Positions 7,697-9,128 of a DNA stretch of 12,876 nt are shown here, in pieces. A model generated the notes under the pieces. The model was not told where the DNA came from and ran no database searches. It was given only the letters and a program-made list of their open reading frames with translations. This DNA comes from an uncultured Ruminococcus sp. (GTDB lineage: Bacteria > Bacillota > Clostridia > Lachnospirales > Lachnospiraceae): NCBI GenBank assembly GCA_900555215.1, contig USKR01000009.1:1-12876 (forward strand), in the 5' to 3' direction. Position 1 is the stretch's first letter. Every line of letters begins with the position of its first letter. The position numbers were made by a program, and so were the translations under genes.

Positions 7697-8191
7697 ATGA
7701 CAAAAGATGTACTGGTCAGTATTTCGGGAAAACATATTGATATAATGAACGATCCTTTGGAGGGATATGAGACCGGGGATGACGCCATTGAAGTTGTTAC
7801 TCCGGCTGATTATTACTGCCGGAACGGCAAACACTATATTATCTACGATGAAGTTTTCGAGGGGATGACAGGCACTGTCAAAAACAAGATCAAGATCACG
7901 GGAACAGACGTGGTGGAGATCATGAAGAGCGGCCTGACCACCTCACACATGGTTTTTGAAAAAAATAAAAAGAATCTGACATATTATAAAACTCCGTACG
8001 GTCAGATGCTCATAGGAGTGAATACTAAAAATATGGAGATCAGCGTGGAAGACGATAAGATCGGCGTCCTGGTAGACTATGAATTAGATGTAAACCATGA
8101 ACCTCTTGCTGACTGCAAGATCAAAATGAGCATCATGCCCAAAGAACAAGTGGAGTGGACAAAGGGACCGTCCGCGGGGTGCGCATCATAA
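7697..8191 (+). CDS. DUF1934 (YwiB-like) beta-barrel protein; 3' end and stop lie in a palindromic element
   Basis: This 164-residue protein opens MTKDVLVSISGKHI and continues YYCRNGKHYIIYDEVF, TVKNKIKITGTDVVEIMKSG, MVFEKNKKNLTYYKTPYGQM and a strand-rich end IGVLVDYELDVN...DCKIKMSI. This matches the DUF1934/YwiB family of small calycin-like proteins with unknown role. B. subtilis YwiB is about 142 residues and ends near the equivalent of KMSI. Here about 18 more residues follow, and those from about 8157 onward are encoded by the left arm of the repeat element at 8170-8339; the TAA (8189-8191) belongs to the element's conserved TATCATAA/CATCATAA box. GAGGAG (7682-7687) sets the ATG at 7697. 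The gene is translationally close to murI (3-bp gap), so it is probably in the pfkA-murI unit. Confidence 0.85.
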   Translation: MTKDVLVSISGKHIDIMNDPLEGYETGDDAIEVVTPADYYCRNGKHYIIYDEVFEGMTGTVKNKIKITGTDVVEIMKSGLTTSHMVFEKNKKNLTYYKTPYGQMLIGVNTKNMEISVEDDKIGVLVDYELDVNHEPLADCKIKMSIMPKEQVEWTKGPSAGCAS

Positions 8192-8339
8192 CGCGGGACC
8201 CGCTCCGCTTTACCTCAAAGATTGTGTAGATGTAACAGAGAAGAGAGATGTTCGTCCATTGGGACTCCACATCTAAAACCAATGCTTTTCGGAACGCTCC
8301 CGCGGGATGTCCCGCTTTTATGATACCCACCCCGCGGAC
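8170..8339 (+). repeat. Palindromic structured element, copy 1
   Basis: The terminal inverted repeats are 8170-8199 and 8309-8339, about 30 nt each. Both read GTCCGCGGGGTG, then ATCATAA, then GCGGGAC from the outside in, with a few mismatches and one bulge. Looser similarity may extend them outward (GGACAA at about 8158; complement of TTATCC at 8345-8350). Inside lie TACCTCAAAGATT (8211-8223), a stem TAGATGT (8227-8233) with ACATCTA, a small hairpin GTCC-ATTG-GGAC (8254-8265), and ATGCTTTTCGGAACGCT (8282-8298). The core matches the reverse complement of copy 2 (8482-8665). No coding potential is credible. No clear target-site duplication is seen. It could be a MITE/REP-like element or a structured 3'-UTR RNA. 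Confidence 0.85.
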
Positions 8340-8360
8340 TCACCTTATCCAAACCGGAAG

Positions 8361-8379
8361 AAAAAAGCCCCTGCGGGGC
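8361..8379 (-). terminator. Intrinsic terminator on the minus strand
   Basis: Read on the minus strand, GCCCC (8379-8375) pairs with GGGGC (8371-8367) around a GCA loop and is followed at once by TTTTTT (8366-8361). This is a textbook rho-independent form. On the plus strand the stem is followed by AAAAG, so it acts in one direction only. It would end the transcript of the membrane protein gene (8697-9128), giving a 3' UTR of about 335 nt that contains copy 2 and the branched fold. Confidence 0.75.
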
Positions 8380-8390
8380 AAAAGTCAAGT

Positions 8391-8445
8391 GGCATATTGG
8401 CGCGAAGCGCCTCATGCCGCAGGCGAGCATCTTTGATGCAATGCC
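8391..8445 (-). ncRNA. Candidate branched RNA fold upstream of the terminator
   Basis: GGCAT (8391-8395) pairs with ATGCC (8441-8445) and encloses three hairpins: GGCGC-GAA-GCGCC (8399-8411), GCC-GCA-GGC (8416-8424) and GCATC-TTT-GATGC (8427-8439). The result is a cloverleaf-like four-way junction of 55 nt. It is not a tRNA: there is no T-arm, acceptor stem or anticodon stem of the right size. The fold is symmetric, so strand is assigned only because the terminator lies downstream on the minus strand. This rests on one sequence, so it is a candidate only. Confidence 0.3.
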
Positions 8446-8481
8446 GGAAATCCGCTCCTCCTCCCGTCTTAGAAAAAACAA

Positions 8482-8665
8482 GTTCCCGGACTGTATATCA
8501 TAAAGCAGGACATCCCGTGAAGCGTTCCGAAAAGCATTTGTTCCGGATGTTAGCTGGCGGCAAATGGAGCCCCGCTGGGCGAACATTTGACTCCGGCGTT
8601 ACATCCGTTCAAATCTTTGAGGTAGAGCGCAGCGGGTCCTGCGTTATGATATACAGTCCGGGAAC
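8482..8665 (-). repeat. Palindromic structured element, copy 2 (inverted relative to copy 1)
   Basis: The terminal inverted repeats 8482-8511 and 8636-8665 match over 30 nt with one mismatch: GTTCCCGGACTG, TATATCATAA, GCAGGAC. On the minus strand the inner part aligns with copy 1: CCGCT.CGCT.TACCTCAAAGATT near one end, ATGCTTTTCGGAACGCT near the other, and GATGTAAC and ATGTTCG.CCA in the middle. The nested stems are CGGATGT/ACATCCG, CAAATG/CATTTG and GCCC-AGCG-GGGC. Compared with copy 1 the paired bases change together. It begins 32 nt after the stop of the minus-strand membrane protein gene and is sense-oriented to it, as copy 1 is to DUF1934. Confidence 0.85.
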
Positions 8666-8696: not shown

Positions 8697-9128
8697 TTAC
8701 CGCTTAAAGAACCCTTTCTTTTTCTGCGGCGGCTCTATGGAGCCTCCTCTGACACTTTTGATTTCCGTTATGTAAAGTCCGCTGACAACAGCCTTGATCT
8801 CCTTCTTTACAGGCATGACTTCAAAAACTTTATTTTCGCACATGAGGGTCATGATCCTTGGGCCGATCTTTGCCTTTACAACAGGGATTTTCGTACGTCT
8901 TAAATACTTGGGAGTATTCTCGATGACAGCAGCGGGCAGTCCCGCTTCTTTTAGTTTCATTTTCTTTTTATCAATGATAAGCATGCTGATGACCTGGGCA
9001 GCTGCTTCCATCTGCTCTCTCTGAGCCGCCTGCTTTTTCTCTGCTTTTTTCCCGAAGATATACAGAGCGATGCACGCTGCGATCACCAGTACAAGAATAA
9101 CGATCAGTACGATGGTTAATGGACTCAC
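8697..9128 (-). CDS. Membrane-anchored protein of unknown function
   Basis: This 143-residue protein begins with one hydrophobic helix (about residues 4-26, PLTIVLIVILVLVIAACIALYIF) followed by a basic and polar stretch GKKAEKKQAAQREQMEAAAQ, likely helical or coiled-coil. A conserved-looking domain follows: MLIIDKKKMKLKEAGLPAAVIENTP, then a basic, beta-rich part with PKYLRRTKIPVVKAKIGPRIMTLMCENKVFEVMPVKKEIKAVVSGLYI. The tail is basic (PPQKKKGFFKR). The layout recalls YajC by size and single anchor, but I see no YajC motif and do not assign it. Topology is probably N-out with a cytoplasmic basic domain. The start is GTG 9128 with AGGAGG eight bases upstream. It is transcribed divergently from cls from its own promoter (9176-9204). 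Confidence 0.85.
   Translation of the reverse strand: MSPLTIVLIVILVLVIAACIALYIFGKKAEKKQAAQREQMEAAAQVISMLIIDKKKMKLKEAGLPAAVIENTPKYLRRTKIPVVKAKIGPRIMTLMCENKVFEVMPVKKEIKAVVSGLYITEIKSVRGGSIEPPQKKKGFFKR

What the first reader, a model, noticed from the sequence alone, without database searches (positions are those of the whole stretch)
8170..8665. Two inverted palindromic elements whose stems co-vary
Copies 8170-8339 and 8482-8665 (minus) share a core but differ in their paired arms, and the differences compensate. In the terminal stem, GTCCGCGGGGTG in copy 1 is GTTCCCGGACTG in copy 2, and each is matched by its own opposite arm. GCGGGAC versus GCAGGAC is also matched on both sides. The inner stem TAGATGT/ACATCTA becomes CGGATGT/ACATCCG, and the small hairpin GTCC/GGAC becomes GCCC/GGGC. 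Roughly eight positions change with their partner, while single-stranded parts (TACCTCAAAG, ATGTTC, CTTTTCGGAACGCT) stay the same. This fits selection for a folded RNA, or for a DNA hairpin used in mobility. Arm-to-arm gene conversion could also produce it in the terminal stem.
Basis: seen in the sequence. Interest (0 to 1): 0.78.

Follow-up and report, generated by a model that had tools for sequence, protein, structure and literature searches.

The report
Self-copying palindromes beside gene ends
The two elements belong to a multi-copy family of large mobile DNA palindromes that sits against the ends of genes in the gut bacterium Mediterraneibacter, and their matching mutations look more like one arm being copied from the other during DNA replication than like selection on a folded RNA.

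Summary
In detail: both copies exist, fold far better than shuffles, and change in step. They belong to a family with model hits in 44 of 58 Mediterraneibacter genomes and no Rfam match. Close pairs face inward (29 of 29). In two genomes a subtype forms sharply bounded units of about 680 bp with 13-bp terminal inverted repeats. 34 of 48 unit flanks lie within 10 nt of the stop codon of a converging frame (3% of random, 7% of intergenic positions). At three sites relatives have short junctions, ordinary hairpins or other palindromes instead.

The covariation is real (27 of 43 pairs) but almost purely Watson-Crick: 2% G-U on the element strand, against 16% in 6S RNA and T-boxes. Terminal repeats share variants, asymmetric loops become perfect complements, one loop and four of six orthologous units are inverted, and cores collapse. 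I read this as replication template switching that maintains the palindromes. The mobiliser, the role of the core and any RNA function stay open.

The parts
8170..8339 (+). Copy 1 of the palindromic element
   Evidence: R1 hit 8184-8330, 110 bits (the copy is one of the sequences the model was built from)
8482..8665 (-). Copy 2, inward-facing partner of copy 1
   Evidence: R1 hit 8491-8651, 162 bits (also a model sequence)
8170..8191 (+). Outer arm of copy 1 (pairs with 8318-8339, 91%); also supplies the stop codon of the DUF1934 gene
   Evidence: (I8)
8318..8339 (+). Opposite outer arm of copy 1
   Evidence: I8
8482..8503 (-). Outer arm of copy 2
8644..8665 (-). Opposite outer arm of copy 2
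8212..8220 (+). Core segment ACCTCAAAG of copy 1
   Evidence: Invariant in A1 only because the search pattern required it; copies found by the model keep ACCTC but can differ after it
8285..8296 (+). Core segment CTTTTCGGAACG of copy 1
   Evidence: Required by the search pattern; model-found copies keep TTCGGAACG with other bases before it
8523..8623 (-). Core of copy 2, between the same two segments
8221..8284 (+). Inner hairpin region of copy 1; 15 nt of its 3' arm are missing relative to orthologous copies
   Evidence: window against L253, L257, L262
8340..8481 (.). Spacer between the two inward-facing copies, with a short G+C-rich hairpin
   Evidence: by eye
7697..8191 (+). DUF1934 gene; its last codons and stop lie in the arm of copy 1
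8697..9128 (-). Converging 143-aa gene, no Pfam match; it ends 31 nt from copy 2

Best explanation
The window holds a decaying pair from a Mediterraneibacter family of non-autonomous, mobile, interspersed palindromes that behave like very large BIMEs or MITEs. A unit is two inward-facing quasi-palindromes; in the amplified subtype it is bounded by short terminal inverted repeats. Units occupy very short gaps next to stop codons, mostly between converging genes, where a native terminator would sit (shown for the subtype). The arms keep their complementarity mainly because DNA replication at hairpins switches templates: an arm, a terminal repeat or a loop is recopied from its counterpart, giving double Watson-Crick changes in one step, inverted loops and units, and collapsed cores (the patterns are shown; the mechanism is inferred). 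The core is probably the recognition signal of an unknown mobilising enzyme acting in trans, and the hairpins probably act as terminators for the flanking genes (both inferred, neither tested).
For: Genus-wide, multi-copy: hits in 44 of 58 genomes. Sharp ends: 19 of 20 S-type units measure 676-684 bp, one 619, at 14 distinct sites with unrelated flanks. Sites without the family: araC|pepP site, 3 bare junctions and 10 ordinary hairpins among 20 loci fetched, by eye; home locus, 13 of 27 loci with both flanks lack an R1 hit; sigK|ABC site, 16-56 nt between flank anchors in 7 relatives, 16 being the unit's own flanks closed up. Stop adjacency: 34 of 48 flanks at 10 nt or less, against 547 of 17029 random positions and 1063 of 14616 intergenic ones. 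Compensation: G-U share 0.020 (+) or 0.051 (-), against 0.157 for 6S and 0.164 for T-box; double to single changes 8.8 (+) or 5.9 (-), against 0.0 and 0.96. Outer stems: 75 distinct, 1759 Watson-Crick, 37 G-T, 55 A-C and 71 other cells. Terminal repeats: 10 mismatches within 24 units; 0 of 20000 permutations as low. Nine copies with a symmetrised internal loop; L271 with inverted loop and perfected arms where the same site in L277 has the usual form. Four of six orthologous units inverted (by eye). Template switching is reported to homogenise arms and invert spacers (PMC8604942) and to create and maintain RNA hairpins (PMC8794818); abstracts read.
Against: No mobilising enzyme, autonomous copy or target duplication was found. 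119 of 148 distinct copies keep the asymmetric internal loop, so some constraint acts. The opposite strand folds better in 121 of 125 copies, and on the element strand A-C cells outnumber G-T cells 49 to 19; a symmetric DNA process does not predict this. Copies lie in sense orientation behind a gene (62 of 74 by a crude gene caller), which would also fit an RNA in the 3' untranslated region. In the controls the wrong strand also gave a high G-U share (T-box 0.174, 6S 0.081), so that share is not specific to real RNA, and long perfect palindromes have few G-U pairs by nature. The terminal-repeat result rests on few events: shared variants are ATTTG (5 units, 2 of them one orthologous pair), ATTCGGG (1) and ATACG (1), and 6 of 24 units have unequal ends.
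Confidence: 0.62

Rival explanations
1. The element is a functional structured RNA, either the 3' untranslated region of the upstream gene or a transcript of the opposite strand, and the stems co-vary because selection keeps the fold.
For: Strong folds, 27 of 43 pairs with double changes, sense position behind stop codons, asymmetry in favour of the opposite strand, core segments ACCTC and TTCGGAACG kept even in model-found copies.
Against: Few single (G-U) intermediates compared with T-box leaders of the same genomes; shared variants in repeats 680 bp apart; internal loops rewritten as perfect complements; core collapse and unit inversion. No Rfam match.
Confidence: 0.22
2. The stems are kept complementary because a single-strand transposase (HUH/Y1 type) must recognise a DNA hairpin, so selection for mobility rather than template switching makes the arms match.
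For: Mobility and sharp ends; nearly pure Watson-Crick pairing fits a DNA hairpin; Y1 transposase genes occur in 49 of 58 genomes.
Against: The Y1 gene of G001 (269 aa) is flanked by different palindromes. R1 finds no element in 11 of 12 stretches fetched around Y1 genes; in the twelfth, L233, elements lie about 2 kb away. Selection alone does not explain inverted loops and units.
Confidence: 0.1
3. The copies are ordinary intrinsic terminators that grew into long palindromes in place, with no mobility.
For: They take the place of native hairpins at gene ends, and some have T-tracts behind the outer stem.
Against: Eleven and nine copies of one 680-bp unit in two genomes, with sharp ends and unrelated flanks, are not expected from independent growth.
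Confidence: 0.03

Closest known systems
REP sequences and BIMEs (bacterial interspersed mosaic elements)
   Same: Many interspersed palindromes outside genes, inverted pairs, some close behind stop codons; mosaics of several module types (recalled for BIMEs). Passages of the RepRanger paper seen (PMC12306157): 446 of 4,072 predicted E. coli REPs lie within 15 nt of a stop codon, and REPs that close can stall ribosomes.
   Different: Modules of about 160 nt and units of about 680 bp; RepRanger reports REPs of 10-71 nt in E. coli. No RAYT partner found. Terminal inverted repeats bound the whole S-type unit.
MITEs (miniature inverted-repeat transposable elements; definition recalled)
   Same: Short, no recognisable gene, multi-copy, terminal inverted repeats, variable site occupancy.
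   Different: No target duplication seen, no parent transposase found, nested quasi-palindromes inside, position tied to stop codons.
ERIC, YPAL and similar large palindromic repeats (recalled, not tested)
   Same: Imperfect palindromes of more than 100 bp dispersed between genes.
   Different: Other hosts; no sequence comparison was made here.
Replication template switching / quasipalindrome correction (PMC8604942, PMC8794818; abstracts read)
   Same: Arm homogenisation, spacer inversion, multibase compensatory changes.
   Different: Reported there for yeast coding DNA and for RNA gene histories; here it would act on a mobile repeat family of a bacterial genus.

Membership tests
MITE | Terminal inverted repeats at both ends | tested here: met
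   ATTCGTGTTTGTT-like ends on S-type units; not resolved for the window's own subtype
MITE | Multi-copy, no gene inside, flanks unrelated | tested here: met
   20 S-type units at 14 sites. Reading frames inside 24 units reach 139 aa but differ in length and frame between copies; four of the longest have no Pfam match
MITE | Target site duplication | tested here: not met
   None seen by eye in the 25-nt flanks or the junctions
MITE | Parent transposon with matching ends | tested here: inconclusive
   Repeat pattern sought in 6 genomes, matches in 3; the extra sites fetched showed short repeat pairs or single ends; ORFs there were not searched
REP/BIME | Interspersed inverted palindromes outside genes | tested here: met
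   29 of 29 close pairs are in + then - order; 112 of the 120 hits were used, the 8 weakest left out
REP/BIME | Unit size of tens of bases | tested here: not met
   About 160 nt per module, about 680 bp per S-type unit
REP/BIME | Associated RAYT (Y1) transposase flanked by the repeat | tested here: not met
   The one Y1 locus inspected for repeats (L223) has a different palindrome; no R1 hit in 11 of 12 Y1 stretches fetched; the other Y1 loci were not examined
Structured RNA family (Rfam) | Match to a curated covariance model | tested here: not met
   No gathering-level match in the window; three element loci gave one microRNA hit at E 0.62, far below its gathering score
Structured RNA under selection | Compensation that passes through G-U pairs, as in known RNAs of the same genomes | tested here: not met
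   the 6S set (92% identical) has little power, T-box (80%) is the fair comparison, and wrong-strand controls also carry G-U pairs
Structured RNA under selection | Transcript of the element | not testable with these tools
   No expression data

The most novel reading that the evidence does not exclude
A genus-specific class of mobile 'terminator palindromes' that takes over the gap between converging genes, replaces the native terminators, and keeps itself palindromic by self-templated copying. The whole unit, terminal repeats included, then evolves as one self-correcting hairpin, so that it imitates RNA covariation without RNA selection.
Probability: 0.38. Interest if true: 0.72.

Novelty: new variant of a known kind. 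Interest (0 to 1): 0.57.

Why it matters
Compensatory base changes are often taken as the best proof of a functional RNA. Here is a family with 148 distinct copies in hand in which that statistic is strong but the details (few wobble intermediates, shared variants in repeats 680 bp apart, an inverted loop, symmetrised bulges) point to DNA copying. It offers a natural system for testing how often template switching creates covariation, and a warning for searches that rest on covariation alone. It also adds a mobile repeat family that reshapes gene ends in a gut genus.

Tried and rejected
Rfam: nothing usable. Phage and plasmid collections by DNA similarity with copy 2: no match. Viral contigs with three exact patterns: none. 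Two of the 70 loci (L015 Nitrospirota, L043 Acidimicrobiaceae) look like chance matches and were dropped. Integron attC sites were considered from recall and rejected by eye; no tool test. Y1/RAYT transposase as mobiliser: not supported. Repeat-bounded autonomous copies: none recognised. Breadth: 2 of 299 genomes in a family draw, one being the query genome itself; that search scored only 9 candidates per genome and uses stricter filters, so members may be missed, and the same filters apply to the 14 genus genomes without a hit (50 candidates scored per genome, so the count of 50 in G024 is a ceiling). Hits are not copies one for one: a palindrome can match on both strands.

Rows dropped before counts: 16 of 77 copies as 97% or more alike; the 8 weakest hits; four units with poor ends and those outside 400-720 bp. 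In one search the expressions left 26 of 148 apical loops and 19 of 148 internal loops unclassified. L239, scored there as inverted and as 5'-templated, is by eye a fusion of left and right modules and is counted neither as a loop inversion nor among the nine symmetrised copies; which state is ancestral is inferred from the majority.

Literature: listings name nothing like this family; only PMC12306157 (passages), PMC8794818 and PMC8604942 (abstracts, with the opening of the former) were opened. PMC2267715, on stem-loop families in bacterial genomes, was seen in a listing only.

Full report
What is there. The window has two inward-facing quasi-palindromes, 8170-8339 (+) and 8482-8665 (-), between the converging genes DUF1934 (7697-8191) and a 143-aa gene without a Pfam match (8697-9128, minus). 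Both fold better than all 200 shuffles (z -6.06 and -9.43). The stop codon of DUF1934 lies inside the arm of copy 1.

Family. A pattern from two core segments found 70 stretches in one genome per species; 68 have titles naming Mediterraneibacter, Lachnoclostridium, Ruminococcus or Lachnospiraceae, and two look like chance matches. The scan gave 79 copies with the window's two; 77 remained after the two chance matches were dropped. Sixty-one copies less than 97% alike gave alignment A1. It has 44 invariant columns, but 21 of them were fixed by the search pattern itself. Copies found later by the model keep ACCTC and TTCGGAACG while the bases next to them vary (read by eye). The consensus fold has 43 pairs, 27 with changes on both sides.

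Breadth. Covariance model R1 hits 10 of 10 seed genomes (120 hits), 44 of 58 genomes of the genus (50 candidates scored per genome, so the largest count, 50, is a ceiling), and 2 of 299 in a family draw with 9 candidates scored per genome; one is the query genome, the other has two weak hits.

Architecture. In ten genomes 29 close pairs are all in + then - order and 54 hits stand alone (112 of 120 hits). In two genomes, G001 and G005 (reached through loci titled Candidatus M. surreyensis and M. intestinigallinarum), there are 11 and 9 copies of a sharply bounded unit: 19 of 20 measure 676-684 bp, one 619; six sites are shared, so there are 14 distinct sites (the alignment also held one other pair, L082). 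The ends are AAATTCGTGTTTGTT and its complement, with variants. Inside are a left module, a central hairpin and a right module in which another helix replaces AAAGATTTG/CAAATGCTTT. Shorter repeat-bounded stretches exist. Reading frames inside the units reach 139 aa but are not conserved between copies, and four of the longest have no Pfam match.

Position. Of 48 flanks of 24 units, 34 have the stop codon of a converging frame (60 codons or more) within 10 nt. Random positions in the same loci give 547 of 17029 (3.2%) and positions outside called genes 1063 of 14616 (7.3%). In 16 of 24 units both flanks have such a stop within 60 nt; in three neither has. Six sites are counted twice, once per genome. 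Relatives show that native gaps can be tiny: at the home locus G043 has 59 nt between my flank anchors, with a hairpin overlapping the coding end; at the sigK|ABC site seven relatives have 16-56 nt. Gene names at these sites (araC, pepP, sigK, ABC, ferredoxin, acyltransferase, symporter) are my reading of the sequence, not a family search.

Occupancy changes. At the araC|pepP site (20 loci, read by eye) three relatives have a bare junction, ten an ordinary hairpin, three a member of this family (L169, L174, L177), and four other large palindromic sequence (L164, L165, L175, and L170 behind a different gene). Some of these loci end at a contig edge or have a different downstream gene. At the home locus 30 loci were returned; 27 have both flanks, of which 14 have an R1 hit at E 0.001 or better and 13 do not. 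Some keep outer arms but have lost the core (L256, L265, L267, L275, L277; by eye). Orthologous S-type units in G001 and G005 lie in opposite orientation in four of six cases (L081/L105, L084/L117, L090/L110, L092/L104, against L083/L111 and L087/L102; matched by eye).

Why I do not read the covariation mainly as RNA selection. (1) Against 6S (17 distinct sequences, 92% identical) and T-box leaders (12, 80% identical) of the same genus, the element (61, 76%) has a G-U share of 2.0% on its strand and 5.1% on the other, against 15.7% and 16.4%; double changes exceed single ones 8.8 (or 5.9) to 1, against 0 and 0.96. Two cautions: wrong-strand folds of the controls also give G-U shares of 8.1% and 17.4%, and long perfect palindromes have few G-U pairs by nature, so the ratio of double to single changes is the better figure. 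(2) 75 distinct outer stems give 1759 Watson-Crick, 37 G-T, 55 A-C and 71 other cells. (3) The two 13-bp terminal repeats of a unit tend to share variants: 10 mismatches within 24 units, never as low in 20000 permutations. The shared variants are ATTTG in five units and ATTCGGG and ATACG in one each; six units have unequal ends, so few events carry this. (4) In one search six distinct copies have the 5' side of the asymmetric internal loop rewritten as the complement of the 3' side, and three the reverse (L118, L271, L282); 119 of 148 keep the usual form. (5) L271 carries the apical loop inverted, with perfected arms, where the same site in L277 and L265 has the usual form; L282 is palindromic through the loop. 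Arm homogenisation and spacer inversion are the reported products of polymerase template switching (PMC8604942, abstract), and template switching has been proposed to create and maintain RNA hairpins (PMC8794818, abstract and opening).

What stays open. The opposite strand folds better in 121 of 125 copies, and A-C cells outnumber G-T cells 49 to 19 on the element strand; a transcript of the opposite strand is possible. Copies lie behind a gene in sense orientation in 62 of 74 cases by a crude caller. No mobilising enzyme was found: Y1 genes occur in 49 of 58 genomes, but the 269-aa Y1 gene of G001 is flanked by other palindromes. The window's copy 1 lacks 15 nt of an inner arm, so this pair looks like a decaying one.

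Verdict. Observation confirmed; interpretation partly supported. The thing is a family of large interspersed palindromes, found here almost only in one genus, BIME- and MITE-like in behaviour but failing a defining test of each, whose covariation is best explained by DNA template switching. The mechanism rests on patterns between genomes; no mutation was observed as it happened.

Noticed in passing
L164, L165, L170, L175 (araC|pepP site): Other large palindromic sequence types start at the same place behind the stop codon; L170 seems to join two types. They look like further module families (by eye).
   Followed up: partly
L041:655-2537 and L016:4699-6099: At what reads as one acyltransferase|symporter locus the two element copies enclose different genes in different species: ParE- and RelB-type toxin-antitoxin genes with DUF2000, or a membrane protein weakly like CAAX peptidases, below its cut-off.
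   Followed up: partly
L223:1250-2217: Y1 transposase gene (269 aa; the only Y1 hit in this genome) between arms carrying GGGACGTAGTAAAAT palindromes, an arrangement like RAYT and REP (recalled), separate from this family.
   Followed up: partly
window:8140-8191: The end of the DUF1934 reading frame runs into the element arm, so the element supplies the last codons and the stop.
   Followed up: partly
125 copies; A1: The strand opposite to the element's reading direction folds about 11 kcal/mol better on average, in 121 of 125 copies; a symmetric DNA process does not explain it.
   Followed up: no
G289: Two weak model hits in the only genome of the family draw, besides the query genome, that has any.
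   Followed up: no
L114 right flank: The unit begins right behind the T-tract of what looks like a ferredoxin gene's own terminator hairpin (by eye).
   Followed up: no
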